This document shows, one piece after another, positions 6,963-22,578 of a DNA stretch of 23,001 nucleotides (positions are counted from its first letter, which is position 1; each line of letters opens with the position of its first letter). Source of the DNA: a virus. The stretch is from the IMG/VR virus record IMGVR_UViG_3300027134_000005, positions 1 through 23,001 of that record, one strand, 5' to 3'. The notes below the pieces were generated by a model. It searched no databases, had not been told where the DNA came from, and was given only the letters and a program-made list of their open reading frames with translations. Position numbers and translations under genes: made by a program.

Positions 6963-7084
6963 TGTGCTTCCTTAACGATTGTTTGTACCTTCTCTACGCC
7001 TCTGTCAGCAATGCTAGCTACTCCACTGAAGCCAACAGTAGCTACTATTACTCCTGATATGAATGCAATCAAATGTGTTAACAT
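6959..7084 (-). CDS. 41-residue membrane protein, common phage type
   Basis: AGGAG precedes the ATG at 7084 by 7 nt. Starts MLTHLIAFISGVIVATVGFS and continues GVASIADRGVEKVQTIVKEA. The layout - one membrane helix with GVIVATVGFSG, then 'ADRGVEKV' and a charged helix - is one I recognise from short proteins in many tailed phages. It is the first gene behind the perfect-consensus promoter at 7123-7151. Function unknown; a single-pass membrane location is likely. Confidence 0.7.
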   Translation of the reverse strand: MLTHLIAFISGVIVATVGFSGVASIADRGVEKVQTIVKEAQ

Positions 7085-7122
7085 ACTGTGCTCCTAATAG
7101 CTTATCGGTTGCCCACAACGGG

Positions 7123-7151
7123 ATTATATAGAGACCACCTGCTGATGTCAA
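7123..7151 (-). promoter_or_regulatory. perfect sigma70-type promoter (TTGACA-17-TATAAT)
   Basis: -35 TTGACA at 7146-7151, 17-bp spacer, -10 TATAAT at 7123-7128, both exact consensus. Predicted start near 7116, giving a leader of about 32 nt before the 41-residue membrane gene. An 18-bp near-perfect dyad (7138-7155, CCTG.TGA..TCA.CAGG) covers the -35 element and may be an operator. Confidence 0.85.
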
Positions 7152-7155
7152 CAGG
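7138..7155. promoter_or_regulatory. 18-bp dyad covering a -35 element (possible operator)
   Basis: CCTGCTGATGTCAACAGG: arms CCTG.TGA / TCA.CAGG pair at 7 of 9 positions. The site contains the whole -35 hexamer of the promoter at 7123-7151, a typical place for a repressor. No other copy of this dyad was noticed in the window. Confidence 0.5.
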
Positions 7156-7166
7156 GGCCTTCTATG

Positions 7167-7598
7167 TCACTTCGCTAACTTCTTAGCGTTGTAGAAGTAA
7201 GTAGTAGCTCCTGCATCACTCATGGACAGTTCGTCCTTGATAGCTGCAATCACTGCTGCTTTGTCACCACCCAAGCGCTTGAAGATCTCCAGCGCACGGT
7301 CAGCCTTAGTAGGGCCAGAAGCACGTGGTGCCTTGGGTTCCTTGGCTACCTTAGGTGCCTTCTCAGCCTTGGCTACTGATGAGCTTGCTGCACGGCGCTG
7401 TGCCACATCGTACTCGTTTTGTTGAAAAGCGTTCATTGTCTGCATGTTCTTCATCCTAAATTTAACAGGGCGTGCCTGCTTGTCTTCCGGAAACCCCGGA
7501 TACGGTTTGCCGGCTTCCCGGCTATTATCGACCAGCCACACATTGTAGTGAGCCAGTTTACGATCCAAATAAGCGTTGTAGGTGTTGTGATCCATCAT
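7167..7598 (-). CDS. Lys/Ala-rich phage protein, possibly nucleic-acid-binding (143 aa)
   Basis: The start at 7598 overlaps the upstream stop by ATGA; a second ATG at 7595 has better spacing from GGAG. There are three parts: residues 1-65, a conserved phage domain (NTYNAYLDRKLAHYNVWLVD ... FQQNEYDVAQRR); 66-100, a flexible Ala/Lys/Pro-rich linker (KAPKVAKEPKAPRAS) like histone H1 tails; and 101-143, a helical domain (RALEIFKRLGGDKAAVIAAI ... GATTYFYNAKKLAK) of a type frequent at phage protein C-termini. DNA or RNA binding is inferred from charge only. Confidence 0.78.
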   Translation of the reverse strand: MMDHNTYNAYLDRKLAHYNVWLVDNSREAGKPYPGFPEDKQARPVKFRMKNMQTMNAFQQNEYDVAQRRAASSSVAKAEKAPKVAKEPKAPRASGPTKADRALEIFKRLGGDKAAVIAAIKDELSMSDAGATTYFYNAKKLAK

Positions 7599-7780
7599 GA
7601 CTCCATTATCTCCTGGTCTTGGTCAGAAGTCAACATGTACGACACCTGATTGACCAACTTTAAACTCTCTGCACGGGAGAGGCCATACATGTCCTGCATC
7701 CCGTCAATGATGCTGGAGATATCACAGCCTGCGAACAATGCTTGTTCAATATCCAGTGCTAAGTCAGACATTTTGCTCAT
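7595..7780 (-). CDS. small phage protein (61 aa)
   Basis: I prefer the ATG at 7780 (MSKMSDLALDIEQALFAGCD) because GAGG is then 8-9 nt upstream; the alternative ATG at 7786 touches its ribosome site. An all-helical acidic protein: AGCDISSIIDGMQDMYGLSR followed by AESLKLVNQVSYML. Both ends overlap neighbours by a few nt. Function unknown. Confidence 0.68.
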   Translation of the reverse strand: MSKMSDLALDIEQALFAGCDISSIIDGMQDMYGLSRAESLKLVNQVSYMLTSDQDQEIMES

Positions 7781-7782
7781 TT

Positions 7783-7947
7783 TCATTCCTCTATTAGTTT
7801 CAAAATTGTTGATCGTTCTTGTACTACGAAAGAGCCAGTCAGCCCCTCACGGGTTAACACAACCTTGCCGTCTACTGGATCACTTACCACAACGTATTGC
7901 TTACCGTTGTATGTCACAGCTGCCCCTGCAACGAATTCAGTAGACAT
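7783..7947 (-). CDS. small beta-barrel-like phage protein (54 aa)
   Basis: Start set at 7947 (MSTEFVAGAAVTYNGKQYVV). The frame runs further back, but that part overlaps the upstream gene and has no ribosome site. The pattern of alternating strands (AAVTYNGKQYVVVSDPVDGKVVLTR, split over residues 8-32) with YNGxxYxV looks like a small SH3/KOW-type fold. The C-terminal part FVVQERSTILKLIEE is a strand-helix. No specific family. It overlaps the gene before it by 11 nt. Confidence 0.65.
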   Translation of the reverse strand: MSTEFVAGAAVTYNGKQYVVVSDPVDGKVVLTREGLTGSFVVQERSTILKLIEE

Positions 7948-8191
7948 ACATCTGCAGGGAGGGGTCAAGCTGCAACAGCTGCGCAACAGCCTTGTTCAGG
8001 AACTTCAAGCGTTCAAGCACTTGCGCACGGGGAAGTTCACCATCACAAGTCAGGTTCTCCGGCGACAAGTCAGCGTCGAGTGCCTCAGCAATACGCTGAC
8101 GGTCTGCAGCAGACTCCAGATCATAGCAGGGGTTGTTGAAAATTAAGTTCCAACGATTCTTGTTTTCAACGTACTGTTTCAGGTCTTTCAT
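7937..8191 (-). CDS. phage protein of unknown function (84 aa)
   Basis: Starts MKDLKQYVENKNRWNLIFNN at an ATGA overlap with the gene upstream. Helical and soluble. It contains the segments NPCYDLESAADRQRIAEALD and ELPRAQVLERLKFLNKAVAQ (residues about 20-75). The first half resembles small proteins seen in several tailed phages; no role known. Second gene of the five-gene unit behind the promoter at 8478-8537. Confidence 0.7.
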   Translation of the reverse strand: MKDLKQYVENKNRWNLIFNNPCYDLESAADRQRIAEALDADLSPENLTCDGELPRAQVLERLKFLNKAVAQLLQLDPSLQMYVY

Positions 8192-8451
8192 GCCATCACC
8201 TCATCAGCCAACAGCTCAGCAGACTGACGTTGATCCATCATCTCGGACAGTATATACTTGGCGATGTTCATATTCTGGCGACTTTGGTCCAAAGCCTGAG
8301 CATTGCCAAAGCTCTGCAGCTCCTGTGCATCAGACAACAAGCTCATCACAACCATCTCCAAGCCGCAGCGCTTTGCAGTCATCGATTGCAAATACTGGAC
8401 ACGAATGTCTGCAGTAGACATTCCGTAGCAGTTCTTTTCAAATTCAGTCAT
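8188..8451 (-). CDS. phage protein of unknown function (87 aa)
   Basis: Starts MTEFEKNCYGMSTADIRVQY with GGAG 9 nt upstream. First gene behind the boxed promoter module at 8478-8537, with a leader of about 20 nt. Helical, rich in Met, Gln and Ser. The central region (AKRCGLEMVVMSLLSDAQEL) and the later DQSRQNMNIAKYILSEMMDQ look like a helical bundle that could oligomerise. No family recognised. Confidence 0.72.
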   Translation of the reverse strand: MTEFEKNCYGMSTADIRVQYLQSMTAKRCGLEMVVMSLLSDAQELQSFGNAQALDQSRQNMNIAKYILSEMMDQRQSAELLADEVMA

Positions 8452-8477
8452 TGTGTTCTCCGTTGTTGTATGACCCC

Positions 8478-8537
8478 ATTATCTCTCCAATCAGACCTTT
8501 GGTCAACGATATAATATAGCACTTTCAGCTAAGAATT
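8478..8537 (-). promoter_or_regulatory. boxed promoter module P1 for 8188-8451
   Basis: -10 GATAAT at 8478-8483, 17-bp spacer, -35 TTGACC at 8501-8506, then exactly 21 bp to the upstream box, which reads AATTCTTAGC on the minus strand (8528-8537). GGGGTCAT follows the -10. Predicted start near 8471. One of five copies of the same 60-bp arrangement. Confidence 0.8.
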
Positions 8538-8545
8538 GCGCAATA

Positions 8546-8890
8546 TTATATCCCACTTTTACTCTCTGCAATGGCTATATGTTTGCACTCTCCTCTGTAC
8601 TTGAACCCGGTGCAGCTACATTGTTTCCTGAATAGATCAACAAAGTACACATCACCCTTACTTCCTGCAACCTCAACAACCTTACTGGAAACATCTGCAT
8701 CACTACCTAAGTCATCTACTAGCTTGAATGTCCGACCTCTGATATCTAACCGCAGCGGTGTACGGAATCTAGTCACAGGTCCTACAGAGAACTTACGCAT
8801 TCCTATCGCTATTCCTGTATCATTCAGCAAGTAACTATGATTAGGCATCTTTGCACCAGCAAATTCAGTCGTCTCCATCACTAGCTTCAT
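8546..8890 (-). CDS. SWIM zinc-finger protein (114 aa)
   Basis: The C-terminus carries C91-x-C93-x8-C102-x-H104 (KQCSCTGFKYRGECKHI), the SWIM metal-binding signature CxCx(n)CxH. Residues 20-85 are beta-rich (RFRTPLRLDIRGRTFKLV and VEVAGSKGDVYFVDLF) and probably position the finger. SWIM domains bind DNA or proteins, e.g. in recombination mediators, transposases and bacterial SNF2 ATPases. Here the domain stands alone. AAGGAC lies 7-8 nt upstream of the start. A nested AT-rich palindrome (8920-8959) sits just before it. Confidence 0.82.
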   Translation of the reverse strand: MKLVMETTEFAGAKMPNHSYLLNDTGIAIGMRKFSVGPVTRFRTPLRLDIRGRTFKLVDDLGSDADVSSKVVEVAGSKGDVYFVDLFRKQCSCTGFKYRGECKHIAIAESKSGI

Positions 8891-8919
8891 ATTCCAGTCC
8901 TTTTTTCTAGGTGCGGTTG

Positions 8920-8959
8920 TATAAAATATCGCGAATTCGCTATTCTACGCTATTTTATA
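8920..8959. repeat. nested palindrome in the gap upstream of the SWIM gene
   Basis: Outer inverted repeat TATAAAATA (8920-8928) / TATTTTATA (8951-8959). Inside it lies a perfect 10-bp palindrome GCGAATTCGC (8931-8940). It fills most of the 71-bp gap between two minus-strand genes, so it could be an operator, an RNA hairpin in the leader of the SWIM gene, or a weak terminator. Confidence 0.6.
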
Positions 8960-8961
8960 TC

Positions 8962-9363
8962 TCAATTCTCTGACATTACGATATTTGTAGGCACAGTCTT
9001 ATCGGCTGGCTTGATACGGTTACCATCTATGTCAATTCTTGGCTCATAGAACCTAATGAACCCTTCATATTCCAACTGAGACTGCTCAAACTGAGACATA
9101 TAGTCGTCATCTTCAATAGCAAAGTTGATGATTGTCTCTGTCATATAATCTGAGATTGACTCAATATTAGGCAGCATTGATTCAACGATCATACGAACCT
9201 TCTTAGTAAAGAAGTCATCGTTAGGGGAGAGATAGTGTTCCAGGTCATCTAGAATGTACTCGGAACCACCCTTATTCTTCCAGTATTGTGGTACTGAACC
9301 AACACCGTTCCAATCATGTGCACCGTAGTTCTCTCTTACCTGTGTGATAATAACTAATTTCAT
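8962..9363 (-). CDS. conserved phage protein of the 'MKLVIITQVRENYGAHDW' type (133 aa)
   Basis: The opening block MKLVIITQVRENYGAHDWNG followed by SVPQYWKNKGGSEYIL (residues about 23-38) is highly recognisable from many tailed phages. The middle has acidic segments (EDDDYMSQFEQSQLEYEGF) and the C-terminus is a short proline-containing tail. No activity is known for the family. The start shares ATGA with the stop of a 32-residue basic peptide gene. Confidence 0.82.
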   Translation of the reverse strand: MKLVIITQVRENYGAHDWNGVGSVPQYWKNKGGSEYILDDLEHYLSPNDDFFTKKVRMIVESMLPNIESISDYMTETIINFAIEDDDYMSQFEQSQLEYEGFIRFYEPRIDIDGNRIKPADKTVPTNIVMSEN

Positions 9364-9458
9364 TTTAAACGCTCTCTGGTTAAAGTAAGACGAATACGGC
9401 CATTAACGATACGGCGTATAGTTAGTAGGTTTGAAGTGATGCGAAAGACTCTAATCAT
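9360..9458 (-). CDS. 32-residue strongly basic peptide
   Basis: ATG at 9458 follows the stop of the upstream gene by 2 nt and has GGGAG 7-8 nt upstream; the stop overlaps the next start by ATGA. The sequence starts MIRVFRITSNLLTIRRIVNG and contains eight arginines and one lysine with no acidic residue except a single Glu near the end. It could be nucleic-acid-binding or membrane-active. It is not merely a gap: both ends are coupled and it has a good ribosome site. Confidence 0.55.
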   Translation of the reverse strand: MIRVFRITSNLLTIRRIVNGRIRLTLTRERLK

Positions 9459-9460
9459 AA

Positions 9461-9613
9461 TTACTCTCCCATTGCAGCAATGTAACGAATTACTGGATTC
9501 CAGCCAATATCTCTACCCAAAGATGCCATCATTAACGCATGGTTGAGTGCCTTCTTCTGACCGATTTCAGCGACGAGTTGTTCGCAGTACATTGAAATTT
9601 GTTGTGATGTCAT
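9461..9613 (-). CDS. 50-residue phage protein
   Basis: ATG at 9613 with TTGGAG about 7 nt upstream; TAA at 9461-9463. Starts MTSQQISMYCEQLVAEIGQK and ends GWNPVIRYIAAMGE. A small helical protein; no motif. It lies 12 nt after the gene before it and 2 nt before the basic peptide gene. Confidence 0.62.
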   Translation of the reverse strand: MTSQQISMYCEQLVAEIGQKKALNHALMMASLGRDIGWNPVIRYIAAMGE

Positions 9614-9625
9614 CTTATTCTCCAA

Positions 9626-9811
9626 TTAACCGAAATAACATTCAACAGCATCGTCAATATTCTCAGAGAATACATCGTCGTACAAACCAGTAACGTCCTG
9701 TAAGAAGAACTTCTGCAATTCTTTCTTAGATGGCTCTTTTCCAGATACTTCCAATGCTAATTCCTTGACCAAGTTAATAGCTTCTGCTGAAATTTCAATC
9801 GTGATCTTCAT
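9626..9811 (-). CDS. small phage protein (61 aa)
   Basis: Start chosen at 9811 (MKITIEISAEAINLVKELAL) because AAAGGAG lies 7 nt upstream and the previous gene stops 1 nt before; the frame stays open further back into that membrane gene. An N-terminal strand KITIEIS is followed by helices and an acidic end (DVFSENIDDAVECYFG). The N-terminus resembles the ribbon part of ribbon-helix-helix-like small proteins, but no family is certain. Confidence 0.68.
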   Translation of the reverse strand: MKITIEISAEAINLVKELALEVSGKEPSKKELQKFFLQDVTGLYDDVFSENIDDAVECYFG

Positions 9812-9812
9812 A

Positions 9813-10055
9813 TCATGCTCCTTTGAATGCATTAACCAAACCAGCAAACCCGATAACCAACGAAATAACATTAACAAATGCCTGTGGGTAGTTTGTTACC
9901 CTCATCGACCAGACCAGGAATAGTATTGCGCCAATCGCAAATACTACAATATTGTACGGATACATCGCTGGTCCAATTGCATTAAGAATATGACCTGTCA
10001 CAATAGTAACAGCTCCTACCCACTGAATAATGTTGTTTGTCTTTTCTGTTGTCAT
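9813..10055 (-). CDS. three-helix membrane protein (80 aa), probable leaderless mRNA
   Basis: Starts MTTEKTNNIIQWVGAVTIVT. There are three transmembrane helices (about 11-29, 34-51 and 58-77), with the YPYN motif between helices 1 and 2. This layout resembles small three-helix proteins related to half-transporters, though transport is not shown. The A of its only plausible ATG (10055) falls exactly at the predicted transcription start of the promoter at 10062-10121, and no Shine-Dalgarno exists. The mRNA is therefore probably leaderless. Confidence 0.75.
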   Translation of the reverse strand: MTTEKTNNIIQWVGAVTIVTGHILNAIGPAMYPYNIVVFAIGAILFLVWSMRVTNYPQAFVNVISLVIGFAGLVNAFKGA

Positions 10056-10061
10056 GTCCCC

Positions 10062-10121
10062 ATTATCCCGTCAATCTGGTCTTTGGACAACGGTCTAATG
10101 TAGGACAATTGGCTAAGAATT
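10062..10121 (-). promoter_or_regulatory. boxed promoter module P2 for 9813-10055
   Basis: -10 GATAAT 10062-10067, 17-bp spacer, -35 TTGTCC 10085-10090, 21 bp, then box AATTCTTAGC (minus strand; 10112-10121). GGGGACATG follows the -10, so the predicted +1 coincides with the start codon. The word AATTGTCCT occurs on both sides of the box. Confidence 0.8.
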
Positions 10122-10132
10122 GATAAGGACAA

Positions 10133-10405
10133 TTACTTAGGAATCCGAATGATGATAGCACCACGGCGGTAGTTTGATGGATCATTGGTCAAGTGCGAAG
10201 TGATACCTTTGTATCCATTGTCTTGTAGTAACTTAACAATAGATGACTTGATCTCGACGTCGCCTCCGTTTCCTGTACGGTATGCCTTAACAGTATGACA
10301 ATCGTTGTAACTGTTAGTGTACACAGTCTTACGGCCTAATGCATAGAATGCACGGCGAGCCAACAAAGTTGCAGGAATCATTGCCTGTAATGCTACTTCT
10401 CTCAT
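10133..10405 (-). CDS. basic phage protein of unknown function (90 aa)
   Basis: Starts MREVALQAMIPATLLARRAF with GAGGAG 6 nt upstream and an ATGA overlap with the zinc-ribbon gene. A helical basic N-terminus is followed by an alpha/beta part: TVKAYRTGNGGDVEIKSSIV and the C-terminal RRGAIIIRIPK. It may be a small nucleic-acid-binding protein, but no motif confirms this. Confidence 0.7.
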   Translation of the reverse strand: MREVALQAMIPATLLARRAFYALGRKTVYTNSYNDCHTVKAYRTGNGGDVEIKSSIVKLLQDNGYKGITSHLTNDPSNYRRGAIIIRIPK

Positions 10406-10581
10406 ACTGACTCCTCATTCAATTCATCTTGACAATCCTGACACATCTCTTCCCCATCAAGCATGCGAAAAAGGTTCTTTGGTTTCTGCGTCTTGCAAAA
10501 TAGACACACTTTTACTGTGCCCAAGTAAGCCTGAGTAGAACTGTACCCAGAATTAATAGTACTGTAGACTAATTGTGCCAC
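10402..10581 (-). CDS. small zinc-ribbon protein (59 aa, GTG start)
   Basis: Reads from a GTG at 10581 to TGA at 10402-10404. It contains C26-x2-C29 (VCLFCKTQKPKNLF) and C47-x2-C50 (EEMCQDCQDE), a clean four-cysteine zinc ribbon with a 17-residue loop, like the treble or ribbon fingers in phage transcription-related proteins. The upstream half (AQLVYSTINSGYSSTQAYLG) is polar. GGACG sits about 9 nt upstream. The stop overlaps the next ATG by 4 nt. Role unknown; protein or nucleic-acid binding is likely. Confidence 0.65.
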   Translation of the reverse strand: MAQLVYSTINSGYSSTQAYLGTVKVCLFCKTQKPKNLFRMLDGEEMCQDCQDELNEESV

Positions 10582-10583
10582 GA

Positions 10584-10763
10584 TTAAGCGTCCAATACAT
10601 TTATAAGTTCTGATGAGAGAAAGATGGCACTCTCGTACACTTCCAATGCCTCATCATAGTCAAATTCGTACTTGTCAATCAATTTGTCCATGATCATATC
10701 AGCAGGGACACCATTGAGGTAGTCCTCAACTATCTCCATAACTAAATCTTTCATCGCACTCAT
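10584..10763 (-). CDS. small acidic phage protein (59 aa)
   Basis: I chose the ATG at 10763 (MSAMKDLVMEIVEDYLNGVP) on AAGGAG with 7 nt spacing. An in-frame ATG nine codons earlier, at 10790, lies exactly at the predicted transcription start, so a second, leaderless start adding MTNENKENI is possible. Helical and acidic: DKLIDKYEFDYDEALEVYES. The repeat of Y/F and D/E along the helix is typical of small adaptor proteins. Function unknown. Confidence 0.7.
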   Translation of the reverse strand: MSAMKDLVMEIVEDYLNGVPADMIMDKLIDKYEFDYDEALEVYESAIFLSSELINVLDA

Positions 10764-10796
10764 GATATTCTCCTTGTTTTCGTTTGTCATGACCCC

Positions 10797-10856
10797 ATTA
10801 TCATATCAAATTGGACTTTGTACAACGGTTTCAAGTAGGACTATCAGCTAAGAATT
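10797..10856 (-). promoter_or_regulatory. boxed promoter module P3 for 10584-10763
   Basis: -10 GATAAT 10797-10802, 17-bp spacer, -35 TTGTAC 10820-10825, 21 bp, box AATTCTTAGC (minus strand; 10847-10856). Predicted +1 is the A of an ATG at 10790. Similarity to P4 extends upstream of the box (ATTGCTA) and beyond. Confidence 0.8.
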
Positions 10857-10878
10857 TGTAGCAATTCAGTGCTAGTTT

Positions 10879-11073
10879 CTACATTCCTCTGGAAACCTGT
10901 GCTTCCAACTTGTGAGCAGAGATCTTAGTCAATTCAGCGAACTGTTTGCGTAATTGGTAATTACTTTGCTTCTCATTGATCCTGCTGGGGAGGTTAAGCG
11001 ATAATTGAATCTGACTGATGAACTTAATCAGCTTCTCCTTCTCTACACGCTCGTACTCCTCACGGTCAATCAC
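10879..11073 (-). CDS. small charged phage protein (64 aa, GTG start)
   Basis: Starts at a GTG (11073), with AGGAG 6 nt upstream; the start lies 8 nt inside the end of the previous gene. Sequence MIDREEYERVEKEKLIKFIS then QIQLSLNLPSRINEKQSNYQ. It is predicted to be nearly all helical and coiled-coil-like, basic toward the end (KISAHKLEAQVSRGM). Last gene of the unit started at the promoter 12245-12304. No family recognised. Confidence 0.68.
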   Translation of the reverse strand: MIDREEYERVEKEKLIKFISQIQLSLNLPSRINEKQSNYQLRKQFAELTKISAHKLEAQVSRGM

Positions 11074-11440
11074 AAGTAACTCCTGCAGGAATCTCTACGT
11101 GGCGAAGTACATCAGGCTTGACATATCCGTCTCGTGCATAACATTCCCAGCTATTCTCATGAAAATTATACAAATACAGATAGTCATACCCCTGTATTGC
11201 ATCGATCATTGAATCATTGACTTCGTGATCATCAGGCGTTCCGTCTCCGAACCGTACACACATTCCGTCATGATCGAAGTTACGAATTTGAGGGCCGTGA
11301 ACAAGCTGTTCGGCTTTGTCTGGAGAAGCATAGTGCTCCTGCAAAATCTTTCCTGTATGGCTTGGATAACCATCATAATGACTGTAGATTGTAAAGATCC
11401 TCTGACCTACTCTATAACCAATCGCTGCTCTTGTACTCAT
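11066..11440 (-). CDS. conserved phage protein of the 'MSTRAAIGY' type (124 aa)
   Basis: Starts MSTRAAIGYRVGQRIFTIYS, then HYDGYPSHTGKILQEHYASP (residues about 21-40). The sequence 'STR(A/S)xI..., I-Y-x-HxDGYxSHxGxIL' is a signature I recognise from a widespread tailed-phage and prophage family. A beta-rich middle with FGDGTPDDHEVN and a C-terminal tail ending EIPAGVTCD follow. Activity unknown. Confidence 0.82.
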   Translation of the reverse strand: MSTRAAIGYRVGQRIFTIYSHYDGYPSHTGKILQEHYASPDKAEQLVHGPQIRNFDHDGMCVRFGDGTPDDHEVNDSMIDAIQGYDYLYLYNFHENSWECYARDGYVKPDVLRHVEIPAGVTCD

Positions 11441-11441
11441 A

Positions 11442-11618
11442 TCAACGTCCTAACACAACATAGTCAATAATTCTGTATACGGCAGCCATGCAAGTAAGAA
11501 TGAACGCTATGAACAAACCTACTTGCGGCACCAAACACAAAAACACAATGTAACTTATCAGTAAAAATATTACAGACAGTTTCACTCCAAACGGCATTGC
11601 TTTAATTCGTTCAATCAT
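11442..11618 (-). CDS. two-helix membrane protein (58 aa)
   Basis: Start set at 11618, where ATG shares a base with the TAA stop of the gene before it and AAGGG lies about 9 nt upstream; a GTG three codons earlier is possible. Sequence MIERIKAMPFGVKLSVIFLL, then ISYIVFLCLVPQVGLFIAFI. Two membrane helices (about 13-29 and 32-50), basic N-terminus inside. Function unknown. Confidence 0.68.
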   Translation of the reverse strand: MIERIKAMPFGVKLSVIFLLISYIVFLCLVPQVGLFIAFILTCMAAVYRIIDYVVLGR

Positions 11619-11827
11619 TATACACACCCTTCAACAATATTTTTGAAATTTAATTTAGTGAACCCTTGATTGTACGCCCACACAGCACACTTATCTTTGA
11701 GCTCACTCTCATCATCGCCACCAAAAGAAACGAGGCAGTTACGACGATACATCACTTGCACACAACGTGCAGTCTCTGCTGCTCCGAAAGGGCGATATGT
11801 CAAAATAGTAGCAGTCTTCTGTTTCAT
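11618..11827 (-). CDS. small phage protein (69 aa)
   Basis: Starts MKQKTATILTYRPFGAAETA with GGAG 7-8 nt upstream and an ATGA overlap with the previous gene. An alternating strand-helix pattern: a first strand ATILTYRPF, a helix AAETARCVQVMYRR, then LVSFGGDDESELKDKCAVWA and a final strand LNFKNI. Mixed alpha/beta, soluble. I do not recognise it. Confidence 0.7.
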   Translation of the reverse strand: MKQKTATILTYRPFGAAETARCVQVMYRRNCLVSFGGDDESELKDKCAVWAYNQGFTKLNFKNIVEGCV

Positions 11828-12012
11828 TCTGATTCTCCGAGTAAAATCTTCTCAATCAAACTAAATTGGTCAGCAGTAATGTTCAACCAATTAGAAGCAC
11901 CACGATCAGACTGCATCTTCAACATGATCTGACCATTTTCTTTCAAGCTGTCCTCACCGAGTGGCAAAGGAGCAACAACTATTAGCTGATTTGCAATATA
12001 TTCTGTACTCAT
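11824..12012 (-). CDS. small phage protein (62 aa)
   Basis: Starts MSTEYIANQLIVVAPLPLGE with GGAGG 6-7 nt upstream. A hydrophobic strand NQLIVVAPLPLG is followed by a polar part and ends in a helix (ITADQFSLIEKILLGESE). No motif, no membrane helix long enough to span. Overlaps the next gene by 4 nt. Confidence 0.68.
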   Translation of the reverse strand: MSTEYIANQLIVVAPLPLGEDSLKENGQIMLKMQSDRGASNWLNITADQFSLIEKILLGESE

Positions 12013-12013
12013 C

Positions 12014-12217
12014 TTAGTCCTCCAATGAACGCTGAATCAACAAATTAATTACTTCCATCTGCTTGGCAGCAGGAGCATCAACTAACATCGCAGCTAACTG
12101 CGACTGGAAAAAGCCTGCAGCATAAGCTAGTCCACTAGTCATACCATGACGTTTCTGTGCACTGTAAACCAGCGTACCCAAAAATACATCTATCTGCTCA
12201 CGTTTCATCTTAGCCAT
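12014..12217 (-). CDS. small phage protein (67 aa)
   Basis: The start at 12217 (MAKMKREQIDVFLGTLVYSA) follows AAGGAG by 6 nt. In-frame ATGs at 12220 and 12238 also exist, and the latter sits exactly at the predicted transcription start. The product is helical and Ala-rich (GLAYAAGFFQSQLAAMLVDA), ending in QMEVINLLIQRSLED. It looks like a small oligomerising helical bundle. First gene of a six-gene unit. Function unknown. Confidence 0.7.
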   Translation of the reverse strand: MAKMKREQIDVFLGTLVYSAQKRHGMTSGLAYAAGFFQSQLAAMLVDAPAAKQMEVINLLIQRSLED

Positions 12218-12244
12218 CATGATCTCCTTTGTTTGCATGTCCCC

Positions 12245-12304
12245 ATTATCTCTCTGTTTAGACCAAAGAACAACAGTTTTGGTTAGTACTATCAGCTAAG
12301 AATC
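12245..12304 (-). promoter_or_regulatory. boxed promoter module P4 for 12014-12217
   Basis: -10 GATAAT 12245-12250, 17-bp spacer, -35 TTGTTC 12268-12273, 21 bp, box GATTCTTAGC (minus strand; 12295-12304). AGTACTA occurs on both sides of the box as direct repeats with a 31-bp period (plus-strand TAGTACT at 12284-12290 and 12315-12321). Predicted +1 is the A of an ATG at 12238. Confidence 0.8.
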
Positions 12305-12340
12305 TATAGCAATCTAGTACTAACTTCAAACCGTTTGATA

Positions 12341-13219
12341 TCAATTAACGAGCATGTATGTTGCCAGGTCTTTCCAGCTACTTCCACCGTCTGTACGGAT
12401 CTTGGTCACATTGATCAATGTTCTAAGATTGATCTCTTTTGCAATGTCCTTATTGACTTTCAAGAATTCGAACGCATCCAACTTCTGGATAGAAGAAACA
12501 GATGGAAGAAAATTAGCCTCTTTCAGAATGTGCTCCATACGGTCTATCTTCTGATCAGTAGTCATAGACAGGTCAATACACATCGAACGACTGCGCAAAG
12601 CTTGGCTAATCTTGTCCTGTGTCAGGTTACTGATGAATACTACTCCACCTGTAAACTGAAAAGTACGTGGTAAGTTGTCATCTACGCTGTTTGTATTCCA
12701 TGAGATGAAACGCTTATCGTATGAGTCCAAAGCACCCTTCAACAAGTTGAGAGCATCAGGATCTTTGAGAATAGAGTCGCAATCATCGAAGACGACAATG
12801 CTATCTTTGTTCTCGTAAAGTAACTTAAAAAGGCCTTTCGCTGTCGAAAACCCCTTAATTACTACGAAAGTCTTGTTTCTTTGAACAACTGTACCGTCAT
12901 CAGCATCTGCAACCATCTCGGTTACATCTTTCAGACCAACACTCTTCAGCGAGTTGATTACGGTGTGAGTCTTACCAAGGCCACCTTCGCCAGTAATAAC
13001 TACGGAAGGAGTAACACGACGAGCAATCATAGACACGATCTGCTCAACGAATTGGAAACGCTGATTGATAGGGAATTCCATCGCTTTGTTCTCAGATTGA
13101 GGAGCTTCCTCGTAGCCATCGATCTTCTGCTTGAGATAGTATTTGTTCTTAGAACGAGCAACTTCTTTGCCTGCAGCGTTGAAAGCGACAAATACACCGT
13201 TGATGTTGCGAATTTCCAT
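12341..13219 (-). CDS. AAA+ ATPase (292 aa)
   Basis: Walker A GEGGLGKT (77-84), Walker B IVVFDDCD (141-148), sensor-1 FISN (195-198) and candidate arginine fingers in ALRSRSMC (207-214) are all present, with a helical C-terminal lid. Residues 1-50 form a small N-terminal domain (NGVFVAFNAAGKEVARSKNK). The Walker B reads DDCD rather than DE, so the usual catalytic Glu is absent and hydrolysis may be slow or use another residue. The overall type resembles phage stand-alone AAA+ remodelling ATPases; substrate unknown. AGGAG lies upstream of the start. It is the only gene of its unit behind promoter P5. Confidence 0.88.
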   Translation of the reverse strand: MEIRNINGVFVAFNAAGKEVARSKNKYYLKQKIDGYEEAPQSENKAMEFPINQRFQFVEQIVSMIARRVTPSVVITGEGGLGKTHTVINSLKSVGLKDVTEMVADADDGTVVQRNKTFVVIKGFSTAKGLFKLLYENKDSIVVFDDCDSILKDPDALNLLKGALDSYDKRFISWNTNSVDDNLPRTFQFTGGVVFISNLTQDKISQALRSRSMCIDLSMTTDQKIDRMEHILKEANFLPSVSSIQKLDAFEFLKVNKDIAKEINLRTLINVTKIRTDGGSSWKDLATYMLVN

Positions 13220-13245
13220 GTTAGCTCCTGTTGTTCAATGACCCC

Positions 13246-13305
13246 AGTATACTATGAAACATCGCACCTTACAACGGTGTTTTGTACAACTTATGGCTAA
13301 GAATT
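13246..13305 (-). promoter_or_regulatory. boxed promoter module P5 for the 292-aa AAA+ gene
   Basis: -10 TATACT 13246-13251, 17-bp spacer, -35 TTGTAA 13269-13274, 21 bp, box AATTCTTAGC (minus strand; 13296-13305). GGGGTCAT follows the -10; predicted start near 13239, leader about 20 nt with AGGAG. Confidence 0.78.
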
Positions 13306-13320
13306 TATAAGGAAAAAGTG

Positions 13321-13515
13321 CTATTTCCTCTTGGACCTCTTAGCAGGTATGGTTTCAACAACAGGAGTCTCGAGCGCAACTACCCATTGCTTGTGTTCCT
13401 CAATCAGATCATTGTACTGCTGCTCAGTTACAATCTCATCGTTCCAGCGGAATATTGGTATATCGGCTGAGTACTTGTCGAGCTTCGGTAAGACCGTTTT
13501 CTTCTGTGCTTTCAT
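13321..13515 (-). CDS. small basic phage protein (64 aa)
   Basis: Starts MKAQKKTVLPKLDKYSADIP with GGAG about 8 nt upstream. Its first 80 nt overlap the end of the gene before it in another frame. The segment FRWNDEIVTEQQYNDLIEEH is a strand-turn-helix often found in small phage proteins ('W.dg..vteeqYn.LI.eH'), and the C-terminus is a basic tail (AKRSKRK). A nucleic-acid contact through the tail is possible. Last gene before promoter P5. Confidence 0.68.
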   Translation of the reverse strand: MKAQKKTVLPKLDKYSADIPIFRWNDEIVTEQQYNDLIEEHKQWVVALETPVVETIPAKRSKRK

Positions 13516-13681
13516 CTAACAGCTCCATCTCTGCAACATCCAGTTCGGACTTTGCTTCTCTAATTAATTTCAAAGCATAATCAAGATCATCAGATGTTGC
13601 CCACGAATAAAAGTCTTCCAACGTCTCATCGTCTGAGTCCAATAAGAAATGCAAATTGTTTCGGTCCCAATCATTCATCAT
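13436..13681 (-). CDS. small acidic phage protein (81 aa)
   Basis: I place the start at 13681 (MMNDWDRNNLHFLLDSDDET) on AGGA 5 nt upstream; an ATG one codon later is equally possible. Very acidic and helical: LEDFYSWATSDDLDYALKLI followed by REAKSELDVAEMELLDESTE. The central part looks like a helix-turn-helix bundle with the 'FYxWATxDDLDYAL' pattern familiar in small T4-like phage proteins. Its 3' end overlaps the next gene by 80 nt. Confidence 0.7.
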   Translation of the reverse strand: MMNDWDRNNLHFLLDSDDETLEDFYSWATSDDLDYALKLIREAKSELDVAEMELLDESTEENGLTEARQVLSRYTNIPLER

Positions 13682-13784
13682 TACCGTCCTTTTGAATATA
13701 TTCAATAACGTAATCTAATATCACAGCAAGCACGAGCACGGACGCAAGGCATACAAGACCAAAGTAAATGTCACTCGGTTCCAT
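13671..13784 (-). CDS. 37-residue membrane micro-protein
   Basis: ATG at 13784, which lies 14 nt inside the end of the preceding gene; TGA at 13671-13673. One membrane helix (YFGLVCLASVLVLAVILDYV, residues 7-26) and a short charged tail ending QKDGNDE. It overlaps the next start by 11 nt. The AGGAG about 7 nt upstream of the ATG supports translation. Confidence 0.58.
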   Translation of the reverse strand: MEPSDIYFGLVCLASVLVLAVILDYVIEYIQKDGNDE

Positions 13785-14259
13785 CTTGATTCTCCTCTTG
13801 CCATTGAATAAGATTCTCAATTAGATTAAAGCATTGCTCGATGTCACTCGGAATATACTCTTCAATAGCTTCTACCGTCTCCGGGATCTCGTAGCAGTCG
13901 TCACCGTTCTCGTCCCACTTACCAACAAAATTCATTCCTGGTTCGTAGTAATATCCTTCGACTGTGAATCCAAGATGCTCGAGCGCAATATAGAATTCTA
14001 GAGGAGGAGACCAAGCAGTATCAAAGTATAGAGTAATCTCATTCTCTTTGATATCGACAACTCCATCATCGGAACCACTTACATCCCACTTCGTACCCCA
14101 GTTCTCAATACACCAATGAAACCATCCTTCACCAAGATCTGCTGGAGCAGGAGCGAACTCAGTGAATAGCTTATCCTCGAGGAAAGCAGTCTTCAGTCGA
14201 GTAATTAGCTCGGGATCTTCGTGTTTGAATGTTGTTGAATTAGCACACCAGTTTGGCAT
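13771..14259 (-). CDS. Api92-like / DUF1281-type phage protein (162 aa)
   Basis: The start MPNWCANSTTFKHEDPELIT is the familiar 'MPNWCxNxxxxxG' beginning of phage and plasmid proteins related to Api92/DUF1281. Later blocks fit too: FTEFAPAPADLGEGWFHWCI, ENWGTKWDVSG (residues about 53-63), TLYFDTAWSPPLEFYIALEH and the tail with PSDIEQCFNLIENL. The fold is predicted to be ferredoxin-like; biological role unknown. It lies 1 nt after the previous gene's stop. Confidence 0.85.
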   Translation of the reverse strand: MPNWCANSTTFKHEDPELITRLKTAFLEDKLFTEFAPAPADLGEGWFHWCIENWGTKWDVSGSDDGVVDIKENEITLYFDTAWSPPLEFYIALEHLGFTVEGYYYEPGMNFVGKWDENGDDCYEIPETVEAIEEYIPSDIEQCFNLIENLIQWQEENQDGTE

Positions 14260-14260
14260 A

Positions 14261-14740
14261 TCAGCTCCCTGTACCTAAAAGAATGATCTTAGGATTAATT
14301 GAAGATTGGGTCAACGACTCAATAAAAATATGATCGCCACCAACAGCAACAATTGCTTCATCTGCAGCTCTCCACATTTGAAACCATGTAACTGGCCCAA
14401 CTGGAAGAGGAACAGAAAAGTTATCATGTACTAGAACAGAACCTTCTTCTAATTGAAAAGCATTCTCAAATAAATCCTCTATCTCATACATTGACCAAAA
14501 AGATGTGAAGTTATTATTGTCTCTTAGTTGAGAGTAGTATTCGTTTCGTTCATCCCATTGTTTGTCTTTCTGAGTCTGCACTGCATTGAAGCCCTTCTGA
14601 ATAAGAGATTTTGACTTGCGCAGCTCCACAATTATAAAAGGACTGAGAGTGTCTTCCAGTTTATCAATAGCGTTTCTGAGATATACAAGACCATTATGAA
14701 TGTCTGTCATATCTTCTGATGTGATTTCAAATTTACTCAT
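14261..14740 (-). CDS. phage protein of unknown function (159 aa)
   Basis: Starts MSKFEITSEDMTDIHNGLVY with GAGG about 7 nt upstream. Helical first 80 residues (IDKLEDTLSPFIIVELRKSK ... QTQKDKQWDERNEYYSQ) with coiled-coil potential, then a beta-rich second half (SVLVHDNFSVPLPVGPVTWF) and a C-terminal IILLGTGS. No catalytic motif or transmembrane helix. No family recognised; placed among the early small genes. Confidence 0.75.
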   Translation of the reverse strand: MSKFEITSEDMTDIHNGLVYLRNAIDKLEDTLSPFIIVELRKSKSLIQKGFNAVQTQKDKQWDERNEYYSQLRDNNNFTSFWSMYEIEDLFENAFQLEEGSVLVHDNFSVPLPVGPVTWFQMWRAADEAIVAVGGDHIFIESLTQSSINPKIILLGTGS

Positions 14741-14741
14741 A

Positions 14742-14942
14742 TCATTCCTCTATAAATTCTGCAGCAAGTTCACGATAACGAACAATGTACTCTTGACATT
14801 GCTCATACAGCATACGGAAAGCCGCTTGCTCATACTGATTCAAATCAAGACCTTCAATATCCCCAGTGACAGCCATCTTATTAAGACACATATTCATATC
14901 ACTAGAAGTATTCTCAAACACACAATAAGACATGCTAGGCAT
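14742..14942 (-). CDS. small phage protein (66 aa)
   Basis: Starts MPSMSYCVFENTSSDMNMCL with AAGGAG 6 nt upstream. The beginning 'SYCxFENTSSDMNxCL' and the later MAVTGDIEGLDLNQYEQAAF recall a small-protein family of aquatic T4-like phages. Helical end EYIVRYRELAAEFIEE. Function unknown. Confidence 0.74.
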   Translation of the reverse strand: MPSMSYCVFENTSSDMNMCLNKMAVTGDIEGLDLNQYEQAAFRMLYEQCQEYIVRYRELAAEFIEE

Positions 14943-14952
14943 ACAGTTCTCC

Positions 14953-15171
14953 TTAAATTACAACACCAAGTGCATCACAAATCAATTTATTCAGCTCATT
15001 CTCATACGGTTTACCCATGCGACGAAGCTGATAGATCTCAGTCAGAGCTTCTTTGAATTCAAGTTCACAGTCAGTACTAAAACCTCGACTCTTGTACTCT
15101 TCAATGATATCATCATCATCAAAGTCTTCCAAACCGACATCTACCTCGACTTCAGTTGTTATATACGGCAT
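14953..15171 (-). CDS. small acidic phage protein (72 aa)
   Basis: Starts MPYITTEVEVDVGLEDFDDD with AAGGACG upstream. The sequence 'VEVDVxLxDFDDDDIIEEYxSRG' (residues 7-30) resembles a short conserved segment of phage proteins of unknown role, followed by a helical Leu/Lys-rich part. Its start overlaps the preceding gene by 20 nt. Confidence 0.74.
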   Translation of the reverse strand: MPYITTEVEVDVGLEDFDDDDIIEEYKSRGFSTDCELEFKEALTEIYQLRRMGKPYENELNKLICDALGVVI

Positions 15172-15331
15172 TCTCGTCCTTCACTAGTTTATGACATAGA
15201 TTGAGCGTCATCATTACATGATTGTAGACGAGAGCTCGTTGTAGGGTTGGAAGATTCTGAATCATCTCATCCAACTGATCCAAACTATCTGGAGTGTTCC
15301 AGATCTCACATTTCGGAATAGGATTGATCAT
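15152..15331 (-). CDS. 59-residue phage protein
   Basis: ATG at 15331 overlaps the stop of the upstream gene (ATGA). Starts MINPIPKCEIWNTPDSLDQL and contains DEMIQNLPTLQRALVYNHVM. An all-helical protein with no motif. It has no independent Shine-Dalgarno, so translation must be coupled. Confidence 0.6.
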   Translation of the reverse strand: MINPIPKCEIWNTPDSLDQLDEMIQNLPTLQRALVYNHVMMTLNLCHKLVKDENAVYNN

Positions 15332-15459
15332 CGGTCGAACTCACATTCTGTCTCATACTGGCTTTCCAACCAGTTCAAGTATTGAGGATCATTGTCCAGA
15401 ATTAGAATCTCGATCTGATCAATCATCGCATTCATCTCTTCAACAAATTCCAGTTCCAT
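15328..15459 (-). CDS. 43-residue acidic phage protein
   Basis: ATG at 15459 with AAGGAG 6 nt upstream; first gene behind the promoter at 15486-15514. Starts MELEFVEEMNAMIDQIEILI and ends YETECEFDR. Strongly acidic, helical. Function unknown. Confidence 0.65.
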   Translation of the reverse strand: MELEFVEEMNAMIDQIEILILDNDPQYLNWLESQYETECEFDR

Positions 15460-15485
15460 ATTGACTCCTTGTTTGCTATGAGTCC

Positions 15486-15514
15486 AGTATACAACGGTTT
15501 GAAGTTCGGCACAA
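15486..15514 (-). promoter_or_regulatory. sigma70-type promoter P6 for the 15328-15459 unit
   Basis: -35 TTGTGC 15509-15514, 17-bp spacer, -10 TATACT 15486-15491. It shares the CCGTTGT word, the TATACTGG context and the +1 region (TCAT) with the other modules, but the GCTAAGAAT box is missing at the usual distance. Predicted start near 15479. Confidence 0.7.
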
Positions 15515-15537
15515 CTAGAGTAAAATAGTCACATTTT

Positions 15538-15894
15538 TCAATCTACATCGAACCAGATGTCGCGACCATTTCGACGATTGGAGTAATCGTACTCATCTTC
15601 CATCGGAGGGAGAGCAGGCTCAATATCTTCCCGAGTAGGAATGACAATTGTCGCATCAGTTCTTGACGCACGAGCTGCATTGATACGCTCTGTACTTTGC
15701 CAAATGTGCATTTCAGCTTTGTCAGAGGTTTTGTAATATCTGCTAACAGATAATGATTTGTTTATCTTGTCAAGTTCGCTGTGCTCTCGCACGTTAGCAC
15801 AGCTATAACAACAGTACTTTCCTCTCTTTGTGTGCTTGGTTGAGCAACGAGGACATTCTTTTTCTACTATTGGTTTTCTTGGTCTTCCTGCCAT
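15538..15894 (-). CDS. zinc-ribbon / AT-hook-like protein (118 aa)
   Basis: The N-terminus MAGRPRKPIVEK has the AT-hook-like core GRPRKP. Then comes a metal site C14-x2-C17 and C28-C29-x2-C32 (ECPRCSTKHTKRGKYCCYSC). The remaining two thirds are polar and charged, with a helical basic stretch (TERINAARASRTDATIVIPT) and an acidic tail. DNA binding is the likely role; such proteins can be homing-nuclease-related or regulatory, but no nuclease motif is seen. It starts 2 nt after the GT2 gene's stop and lies at the 3' end of the long operon. Confidence 0.78.
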   Translation of the reverse strand: MAGRPRKPIVEKECPRCSTKHTKRGKYCCYSCANVREHSELDKINKSLSVSRYYKTSDKAEMHIWQSTERINAARASRTDATIVIPTREDIEPALPPMEDEYDYSNRRNGRDIWFDVD

Positions 15895-15896
15895 AC

Positions 15897-16616
15897 TTAC
15901 GACCAGTATCGACTATTGTCCAACCTATCCCAATATTGTTTGTTGTTACGATTAATAAAGTTCTTCAACAAATAAATTGCCATGCCAAAGTAACCCATCT
16001 TTTTAAACCTACGACTGTCCTGACCAACATAGTGATTGAGAATCTTAAACTTCCTTGCACTATACATTCTTGATAAGAAGTAATCTTCAGACGTAGAAAG
16101 GTTTTCTGGAAATCTTCCAAACTGATTAAATTTATCTCTGCGAGTGAGCATGAATGCACCGACTGCAAATGGAGAGAAGTATTTCAGGATGTTGTTGGTC
16201 AAGTTAAACAGAGTAAATCCAATCTTGGCTCGAATATCTTTATCATAACATTTGATATTCAGTCCAACCAGATCAAGGTTTTTTGATTCCAATTCAGCTA
16301 CTGCGTCTCGAATCGTATTGACATCAAAGAAACGAACATCAGCATCGATGAATAAAATGTACGGAGTAGTAACAAGAGCAGCGGCACGGTTCTTGGCAAG
16401 GCTAACTGGACCACCGTCAATAATCTCAACATTTAATCTACCCTTAGTCGTTTGAATAATATTTCGAGTATCATCTGTAGAGCAGTCTGCAATAATAATT
16501 CTGGTACTGCCAATCATTTGATTACGAAGATGTAACAACAGCCACGATATGTAATCTTCCTCGTTCTTGCAAGGGATTACAATTGTAATTTTATCGCTCA
16601 GGTTTGTTTCTTGCAT
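15897..16616 (-). CDS. family 2 glycosyltransferase (239 aa)
   Basis: A GT-A glycosyltransferase: IPCKNEEDYI (14-23), the nucleotide-site aspartate of ADCSTDDT (43-50), the DxD-type motif DADV (91-94) and the conserved acceptor/catalytic motif TSEDYFLSR (175-183). The C-terminus (GYFGMAIYLLKNF) is a hydrophobic, membrane-associating helix. Family enzymes transfer sugars from NDP-sugars to surface polysaccharide, lipid A or lipid acceptors, on the cytoplasmic side. Directly downstream of an LpxH-like enzyme, so an envelope-glycan or lipid A target is suggested. Confidence 0.88.
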   Translation of the reverse strand: MQETNLSDKITIVIPCKNEEDYISWLLLHLRNQMIGSTRIIIADCSTDDTRNIIQTTKGRLNVEIIDGGPVSLAKNRAAALVTTPYILFIDADVRFFDVNTIRDAVAELESKNLDLVGLNIKCYDKDIRAKIGFTLFNLTNNILKYFSPFAVGAFMLTRRDKFNQFGRFPENLSTSEDYFLSRMYSARKFKILNHYVGQDSRRFKKMGYFGMAIYLLKNFINRNNKQYWDRLDNSRYWS

Positions 16617-16676: not shown

Positions 16677-17522
16677 TCACAACTCTGCTGAGTTGGAAAC
16701 ATCAACTCTATTCTTCCTGGTTGATCTTGCGGGTTGTTTAAGTTCACCGCTATTAATATCATTATCCACATCGTCATTCTCCTTAGTCCATGTTACTATT
16801 TCCCAATGTCCATCGTGATACTCTACCAATGCAGTACATGACTCTACCCAGTCGCCATCGTTCATGTAGGTGACTCCGTCAATTTCTTTTATTTCAGCAT
16901 GATGTATGTGTCCACATATAACTCCGTCAAATCCTCGTTTCTTACAATATTGAGCTAGATTGTGTTCAAAGTGAAATATGAAATCTACTGCTTTTTTGAC
17001 CCGGTGTTTAAGGAACAGGCTAAGGCTAAAGTACCCAAAACCAAAATGATGACGAATCCAATTAATCCCAGTATTGAGTCTAAGAATGAAATCATATGCT
17101 TTGTCTCCTAACATTGCTAACCAAGGGGCAAGACGAGTGATACCGTCAAACAAATCCCCGTGCACTACGAGGTAGCGTCGACCATCAACACCTATATGTT
17201 CTGCTTGGTTGGTCACTTCTATCATTCCAAAACCAATATCATACTGAATGAATGGTCTTAAAAACTCGTCGTGATTACCAGCCACATACACTACCCTTGT
17301 ACCGCGTTTGCTGTGACCTAGAATTCGACGAACAACATTAGTGTGGGACTGTTTCCATCGCCACTTGTTTTGTTTGATTTTCCAAGCATCAACGATATCT
17401 CCTACGAGATACAATGTATTGCATGAGTTGTGTTTAAGGAAACTATTGAGCTTGTTTGCCTGACAGTCACTGGTTCCTAGATGAACATCTGATATGAATA
17501 TTGATTTGTATTTGGTCTGCAT
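16677..17522 (-). CDS. LpxH-like calcineurin-type metallophosphatase (281 aa)
   Basis: All metallophosphoesterase motifs are present: DVH (12-14), GDIVD (41-45), GNHD (82-85), H121 in VVHGD, and GHIHH (204-208). Together with DWVES (224-228) they match the UDP-2,3-diacylglucosamine diphosphatase group (COG2908, LpxH-like), which cleaves UDP-2,3-diacylglucosamine in lipid A synthesis. The match extends over the bacterial enzyme's whole length, which suggests an acquired host gene. The last 35 residues are a charged extension. Its exact substrate in this phage is not proven; related bacterial enzymes sit beside glycosyltransferases, as here. Confidence 0.88.
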   Translation of the reverse strand: MQTKYKSIFISDVHLGTSDCQANKLNSFLKHNSCNTLYLVGDIVDAWKIKQNKWRWKQSHTNVVRRILGHSKRGTRVVYVAGNHDEFLRPFIQYDIGFGMIEVTNQAEHIGVDGRRYLVVHGDLFDGITRLAPWLAMLGDKAYDFILRLNTGINWIRHHFGFGYFSLSLFLKHRVKKAVDFIFHFEHNLAQYCKKRGFDGVICGHIHHAEIKEIDGVTYMNDGDWVESCTALVEYHDGHWEIVTWTKENDDVDNDINSGELKQPARSTRKNRVDVSNSAEL

Positions 17523-21768: not shown

Positions 21769-22578
21769 ATGGATCCGTTCACCCTCTTTGCTCTGGCGAA
21801 CGGCGCAGTTGCTGCAGTCAAAAAAGGATGTCAACTATACAAAGACATTAAAAGTGCTGCTGGCGATGTCAAGGGCGTCTTAAAAGATCTAGATGCACAA
21901 TTCGCCAAGGCACACCCTCCTGATAAGCCAGCAAGCTCAGCAGCTGTCAAACAACTCAACGAAGAAAAAGCTCGTGTTGTAGATCTCAATAAACGCAGCG
22001 AAGAAGCCCCTAACCTTTACACTGAAATTGGTGAATATCTTGGCCAGTACTATGATAACTACTTTAAATGTGTTGCTGTCTTAGAGGAAGAAGAAAAGAA
22101 AAGTAAAACTGTAGTATATACAGGTGGAGATAGTCTTGCTAAGAGGGCACTGAAGCGTGTTCTGATGAAAAAGCAATTGGAGCAGATGGGAACAGAGCTC
22201 AGAGAGCTAATGACATATCAAAGCCCTCCAGAGCTAGGTGCACTGTTCTCAGAAGTCGAAGCAATGACAAAGGAACTTGGTAAGCAGCAACGGTATCTTA
22301 TTGTACAGCAAATGGAGCGAGAGGCTGTTGAGGCTAAGAGAAGAGCTGTAAGGAGGAAGCACCACGAAATTGATTTTGCACTTGGTGTTGCTTTTTTGGT
22401 TATAGTTATTGTGATAATGTTTTTGTTCATGTACATATCACACGACGCTCAAAAGAGATGGCCTCAGCTAAATACTTCTAGCGGCCAAGAGTACAGAAGA
22501 AAACTAGAATTGCTTGAGATACAAGAGACTCAGCAAAAACTACAAAAAAGAAAGAAAGAATTAGAAAGAGAACAATAA
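21769..22578 (+). CDS. membrane-anchored coiled-coil protein, probably virion-associated (269 aa)
   Basis: The N-terminus MDPFTLFALANGAVAAVKKG with QLYKDIKSAAGDVKGVLKDL resembles the 'MDPxTxxALAxGA...AAVKxGxxLYK' proteins found near tail and baseplate genes of T4-like aquatic phages. A long helical, coiled-coil-prone region follows (about residues 57-200). One transmembrane helix spans about 203-223 (ALGVAFLVIVIVIMFLFMYI). The C-terminal coiled coil is very charged (QETQQKLQKRKKELEREQ). A membrane helix in a virion protein would suit a tail-tape or ejection role; this is inferred. It is the only sizeable plus-strand gene, and GGAG is far upstream (before the 13-codon ORF). Confidence 0.72.
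   Translation: MDPFTLFALANGAVAAVKKGCQLYKDIKSAAGDVKGVLKDLDAQFAKAHPPDKPASSAAVKQLNEEKARVVDLNKRSEEAPNLYTEIGEYLGQYYDNYFKCVAVLEEEEKKSKTVVYTGGDSLAKRALKRVLMKKQLEQMGTELRELMTYQSPPELGALFSEVEAMTKELGKQQRYLIVQQMEREAVEAKRRAVRRKHHEIDFALGVAFLVIVIVIMFLFMYISHDAQKRWPQLNTSSGQEYRRKLELLEIQETQQKLQKRKKELEREQ

What the first reader, a model, noticed from the sequence alone, without database searches (positions are those of the whole stretch)
8478..13305. Five promoters share a 60-bp module with a GCTAAGAAT box at an identical distance
Modules at 8478-8537, 10062-10121, 10797-10856, 12245-12304 and 13246-13305 each have a -10, a 17-bp spacer, a -35, exactly 21 bp, then GCTAAGAAT(T/C) (plus-strand reading). The invariant spacing, with weak -35 sequences (TTGTxx) in four of five, points to a bound factor or an UP-like contact centred near -61. 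The word AGTNCTA in the 21-bp gap is also partly conserved. In the module at 12245-12304, AGTACTA is repeated with a 31-bp period. Promoters at 4421, 7123, 15486 and 21679 lack the box, and two of those have perfect consensus, so two promoter classes may exist. I know of no described regulator for this box.
Basis: partly seen in the sequence, partly recalled or inferred. Interest (0 to 1): 0.78.

Follow-up and report, generated by a model that had tools for sequence, protein, structure and literature searches.

The report
Conserved upstream box of phage promoters
Five neighbouring early promoters of an uncultured T4-type phage carry the same 20-base DNA element at exactly the same place upstream; it is conserved as strongly as the promoter itself in five related viral contigs and is probably the landing site of an unidentified activator protein, built into shuffled promoter cassettes of a partly known kind.

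Summary
Five minus-strand modules read ATTCTTAGC-N21-TTGNNN-N17-NATANT-GGGG(T/A)CA; in 200 shuffles no 8-mer sat at one offset from more than two promoters. The window is a 23-kb fragment of an uncultured T4-superfamily phage. Twelve orthologous modules occur in five related contigs; under the patterns used the module was found nowhere else in IMG/VR, in no bacterial or archaeal genome held, and not in more distant relatives. Across orthologues 6 of 100 element sites change, against 54 of 130 in the neighbouring gap and spacer. The -35 keeps only GTTG; its second half drifts. At one orthologous site a relative has lost the element and has TTGACT instead. Upstream flanks are swapped between modules with the break at the box, and the genes behind them differ. 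This resembles the PeSL cassettes of T4-type phages, but the defining terminator stem-loop is absent. Best reading: a shuffled early-promoter cassette whose upstream element binds a class-I-type activator, from phage or host, not identified. Binding, transcript starts and timing are not shown.

The parts
13285..13304 (-). Module A: upstream element ATTCTTAGC-CATAA-GTTGTA (-65 to -46)
   Evidence: conserved in 4 relatives
13246..13274 (-). Module A: -35 TTGTAA, 17 bp, -10 TATACT; in front of the NrdC.10-like AAA ATPase (12341-13219)
12284..12303 (-). Module B: upstream element ATTCTTAGC-TGATA-GTACTA, inside an inverted repeat TTAGTACTA/TAGTACTAA that is not conserved in L128
12245..12273 (-). 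Module B: -35 TTGTTC, -10 GATAAT; in front of small ORFs 12014-12238 down to 10879-11073
10836..10855 (-). Module C: upstream element ATTCTTAGC-TGATA-GTCCTA
10797..10825 (-). Module C: -35 TTGTAC, -10 GATAAT; in front of 10584-10790 and following ORFs
10101..10120 (-). Module D: upstream element ATTCTTAGC-CAATT-GTCCTA
10062..10090 (-). Module D: -35 TTGTCC, -10 GATAAT; in front of 9813-10055 down to 8546-8890
8517..8536 (-). Module E: upstream element ATTCTTAGC-TGAAA-GTGCTA
8478..8506 (-). Module E: -35 TTGACC, -10 GATAAT; in front of 8188-8451 down to 7595-7786
7605..7633 (-). Boxless promoter for comparison: TTGACT-17-GATAAT-GGAGTCAT
15486..15514 (-). Boxless promoter with weak -35, TTGTGC-17-TATACT-GGACTCAT; its -35 and -10 hexamers are identical in 5 contigs

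Best explanation
The five sites are sigma-70-type, probably early, promoters of an uncultured T4-superfamily phage, organised as mobile promoter cassettes. Each cassette carries a 20-bp DNA element, ATTCTTAGC-YRWWN-GTNSTA, at -65 to -46. Most likely a sequence-specific protein, phage-encoded or from the host, binds there and recruits RNA polymerase through the alpha-CTD (class I geometry, box centred at -61), which compensates for a -35 reduced to GTTG. Shown: the element, its fixed position, its conservation, its restriction to this clade under the searches made, and the exchange of flanks and downstream genes around it. Inferred: a bound protein, activation, early timing. Not identified: the protein.
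For: 17 modules in 5 orthologous families: substitutions per site 0.019 in the box, 0.030 at -56..-46, 0.157 at -45..-37, 0.000 in GTTG, 0.528 at -32..-30, 0.436 in the spacer, 0.028 in the -10. Family-collapsed, 6/100 element sites change against 54/130 in gap plus spacer (Fisher 2e-10) and 52/150 in the upstream flank (4e-8). At -32/-31, box promoters changed at 10/24 sites and boxless ones at 0/16 (p=0.003; comparisons are not independent). In L132 the promoter at the place of module B has no element and has TTGACT. Relatives with 71-76% identical NrdC.10 (G006-G010) lack the element, and their early-type promoters are mostly TTGACT/TTGACC. Element in promoter context only in this clade. 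No common RNA fold.
Against: No regulator was identified. The candidate HTH-like protein 7167-7598 has only non-significant fold matches and has a 43% homologue in G020, where no box was found in the 19.8 kb read. The -35 association is not significant by family (p=0.14 and 0.21). Boxless promoters with weak -35s exist (15486; L306). The fixed 21-bp gap is weak evidence alone: at 0.03 indels per substitution in noncoding DNA about one indel or fewer would be expected in it.
Confidence: 0.5

Rival explanations
1. The box is the crossover segment of a PeSL-like cassette: its sequence is kept similar mainly by recombination among copies, and it has little role in initiation.
For: Upstream flanks are exchanged between orthologues with the break at the box: L128 module B and L129/L132 module C share TGACACTTTCTCCTTATARA, whereas the window's B and C share another flank type. 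Genes behind the modules differ between relatives. Relatives have stem-loop plus promoter cassettes.
Against: Gene conversion would be expected to homogenise the flanking gap and spacer too, yet these have diverged widely while 20 bp stay nearly fixed. GTNSTA lies inside the divergent gap.
Confidence: 0.2
2. A protein bound at the element is a roadblock or insulator that stops transcription from the unit upstream, doing the job of the missing terminator.
For: The element lies about 9-37 nt after the preceding stop codon in all five cases. No intrinsic terminator was found on the minus strand of 7000-16000. PeSL-like relatives have a hairpin at this place.
Against: Does not explain the drift of the -35 second half or the promoter swap in L132. 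Position just after a stop codon is forced by short intergenic regions.
Confidence: 0.13
3. The conserved sequence acts as RNA in the 3' end of the upstream transcript (hairpin, processing site, boxA-like signal).
For: Several modules fold better than shuffles: module B z=-3.7 (window) and -5.2 (L129).
Against: Orthologues L128 B, L132 D and L132 E show little or no excess structure (z -0.6 to +0.2 in the longer region), and arms differ between modules. No Rfam match in the window.
Confidence: 0.08
4. Ordinary recent duplication of a promoter, with no function for the box.
For: The copies are obviously related.
Against: Gap and spacer have diverged to the noncoding background or beyond while the element has not.
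Confidence: 0.05

Closest known systems
PeSL cassettes (promoter early stem-loop) of T4-type phages (Arbiol et al. 2010, doi 10.1093/gbe/evq006; Comeau et al. 2014, doi 10.1093/gbe/evu129; papers not held, known here through PMC4503421 and own knowledge)
   Same: Sigma-70-like early promoter in a short intergenic gap of a region rich in small genes, present in several copies, with exchange of flanks and genes between relatives; a conserved upstream part in the zone where relatives have the stem-loop.
   Different: No intrinsic terminator; hairpins are variable or absent; the invariant part is a linear 20-bp sequence. Relatives (L129:19021, L132:9519, L142, L171) do have hairpin versions.
T4 early promoters (UP/-35/TGn/-10), PMC2988021 and PMC1524935
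   Same: Sigma-70 -10 and -35, extended conservation upstream.
   Different: Upstream conservation there is A-rich UP-like sequence around -40 to -44; here it is a specific mixed sequence at -65 to -46, with a degenerate -35 and a GGGG discriminator.
T4 middle promoters with MotA box (WWWTGCTTTA), PMC2988021
   Same: The box AAATTCTTAG resembles the MotA box, with CTT at the centre, and the -35 is weak.
   Different: MotA boxes lie 12+/-1 bp from the -10; here the box is 44 bp from it and a -35 is present. No MotCF match in relatives, but the control search was also silent.
Class I activator promoters (e.g. CRP at -61.5 at lac; own knowledge)
   Same: Site centred near -61 with fixed phasing, degenerate -35.
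   Different: No known regulator site recognised; factor unknown.

Membership tests
PeSL cassette | Sigma-70-like early promoter in an intergenic gap, in many copies | tested here: met
   (promoter sequence and copies; early timing itself not tested)
PeSL cassette | Adjacent stem-loop acting as transcription terminator | tested here: not met
   No minus-strand intrinsic terminator in 7000-16000; no conserved fold
PeSL cassette | Modular shuffling of flanks and genes between relatives | tested here: met
T4 middle (MotA) promoter | MotA box 12+/-1 bp upstream of the -10, no -35 | tested here: not met
   Box lies 44 bp upstream of the -10; TTG of the -35 invariant
T4 middle (MotA) promoter | MotA encoded | tested here: inconclusive
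   No MotCF match, controls also silent, records incomplete
Class I activator-dependent promoter | Conserved site centred near -61, at fixed distance from the promoter | tested here: met
   Position and footprint only; binding not tested
Class I activator-dependent promoter | Activator that contacts alpha-CTD | not testable with these tools
   Needs protein and transcription assays
UP element | A/T-tracts at -59 to -38 | tested here: not met
   Invariant TAGC at -60..-57 and GT at -51/-50; only about -44..-39 is A-rich

The most novel reading that the evidence does not exclude
A previously undescribed activator, carried by the phage or taken from its host, controls a separate class of early promoters in a T4-type lineage through a 20-bp site at -65 to -46, and early-promoter cassettes can carry an activator site where relatives carry a terminator hairpin.
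Probability: 0.35. Interest if true: 0.7.

Novelty: new variant of a known kind. Interest (0 to 1): 0.5.

Why it matters
T4 early promoters are described as strong promoters that win host polymerase by themselves (PMC2988021). A conserved activator site in a whole class of early promoters would mean that some T4-type phages time or condition their first wave of genes, and the 20-bp footprint gives a ready bait for the factor. It would also extend the idea of shuffled promoter cassettes to versions without a terminator.

Tried and rejected
UP element at the box (sequence and position do not fit). MotA-type middle promoter (spacing; a -10-like hexamer at MotA distance is seen only in module E). 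IHF and other common host sites (by eye; the conserved bases fall in the unconstrained part of the IHF consensus). RNA hairpin as the common feature. Host regulon: 0 matches to element plus TTG in 84,980 genomes, which does not exclude a host factor with other spacing. The first loose pattern scan and the element-only scan gave mostly chance matches. Constancy of the 21-bp gap as proof of function: dropped after measuring the indel rate. Search for a regulator among neighbouring proteins: no assignable early regulator. AlphaFold of 7167-7598 shows a confident three-helix C-terminus but no significant PDB match. No paper on this box was found.

Full report
What the window is. The window is a whole 23,001-base IMG/VR record. 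It encodes T4-superfamily proteins: an RNase H/exonuclease and a NrdC.10-like AAA ATPase (12341-13219) among others, while the window and related contigs together also match gp32, gp59, a late-transcription co-activator, UvsX, DnaB-like helicase and DNA polymerase families. No cultured phage is close: blastn of 8000-14000 finds nothing in 50,697 phage records; one protein of a relative is 57% identical to Methylophilales phage Melnitz. The host is unknown.

Observation. The five modules are exactly as described. Five promoter-like sites sharing one 8-mer at one offset is far outside 200 shuffles (maximum 2). Each module lies just after the stop codon of one minus-strand unit and in front of the next.

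Relatives. A strict pattern (box-N21-TTG-N20-NATANTGGG) found five contigs in IMG/VR. They were read in full and hold 12 further orthologous modules, including two with TTCATAGC. A variant pattern found the same five contigs only. An element-only pattern found 66 stretches; outside these contigs the sequences show no comparable promoter context. The pattern is absent from G006-G018; a looser one gave only two chance-like hits among cultured and uncultured relatives; and element plus TTG is absent from 84,980 bacterial and archaeal genomes.

Footprint. The 17 modules form five orthologous families. Substitution rates are very low at -65..-46, in GTTG, in the -10 and in the GGGGNCA after it, and high in the spacer and at -32..-30. 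Collapsed by family, 6 of 100 element sites vary against 54 of 130 in gap plus spacer and 52 of 150 upstream. The noncoding background between these genomes is about 0.23 substitutions per site (1,757 in 7,780 aligned). The conserved unit is therefore ATTCTTAGC-YRWWN-GTNSTA, followed by A-rich sequence near -44..-39. Constant spacing alone is weak evidence, because indels are rare (53 against 1,757 substitutions).

Link to the -35. Box promoters mostly have TTGT (14 of 17 modules). Boxless promoters found without using the -35 are TTGAC in the 7610 family, 13966 and 19044, but TTGTGC in the 15491 family. At -32/-31 orthologues change at 10 of 24 sites in box promoters and at none of 16 in boxless ones (p=0.003, non-independent; by family p=0.14). 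One site is a natural swap: after the ATPase gene, window module B has box plus TTGTTC, whereas L132:19465 has no box and TTGACT. In a more distant relative, L306, two promoters with TTGACC share a different upstream sequence with an inverted repeat across the -35, and a third has TTGTCC and no box. So the correlation is suggestive, not strict.

Cassette behaviour. Upstream flanks come in types that have been exchanged between orthologous modules, with the break at the box. Genes behind the modules turn over: 10584-10790, 9813-10055, 9626-9877 and 9461-9625 have no homologue in the related loci held, and in L129 and L132 the gene after module D is the homologue of 8962-9363. Hairpin-plus-promoter arrangements occur in relatives in the same zone, for example AAAACCCGCA(GAAA)TGCGGGTTTT in L132 and AACCCTAC(N5)GTAGGGTT in L171, L183 and L185. 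These fit the published PeSL cassettes (Arbiol 2010, Comeau 2014; not held, known through PMC4503421, and own knowledge). The five window modules lack the terminator and have no shared fold, so they fail a defining feature: they are PeSL-like, not PeSLs.

Mechanism. A sequence-specific site at -65..-46, a class I distance, next to a reduced -35, is best explained by an activator that contacts the alpha-CTD. This step is inferred. No regulator was found. Protein 7167-7598, encoded just after the cluster, has a confident three-helix C-terminus with only non-significant PDB matches, many of them homeodomains and the FtsK gamma domain; it is a lead only. Recombination alone, a roadblock, or an RNA function are less likely for the reasons given under the rivals.

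Limits. Most genomes compared, and all that carry the element, are fragments. Early timing, starts, binding and host are unknown. The number of independent families is five.

Noticed in passing
L306 (reverse strand, -35 at 780 and 1753): In a more distant relative two promoters share AACCTTAC...TTGGTCA and an inverted repeat (TTTTGGTCAA-N7-TTGACCAAAA at 780) that covers the -35; an alternative upstream cassette.
   Followed up: partly
L171, L178, L183, L185 and others: Many early-type promoters preceded by AACCCTAC(N5)GTAGGGTT hairpins, the hairpin sometimes reading the same on both strands: apparently PeSL-like cassettes in uncultured phages.
   Followed up: partly
window 7167-7598 (-): 143-aa protein with a basic linker and a predicted three-helix C-terminal domain, encoded right after the box cluster behind a boxless promoter; possible DNA-binding protein.
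   Followed up: partly
window 15486-15514 (-): Boxless promoter with weak -35 TTGTGC; both hexamers identical in five contigs and the spacer nearly so.
   Followed up: no
window 16677-17522 (-): LpxH-like (UDP-2,3-diacylglucosamine hydrolase) phosphoesterase gene in a phage, 48% identical to a gene of Pelagibacter phage Mosig.
   Followed up: no
window 21769-22578 (+): Lone plus-strand gene, 269 aa with a hydrophobic segment near the C-terminus, no PHROG match, with homologues in related contigs.
   Followed up: no
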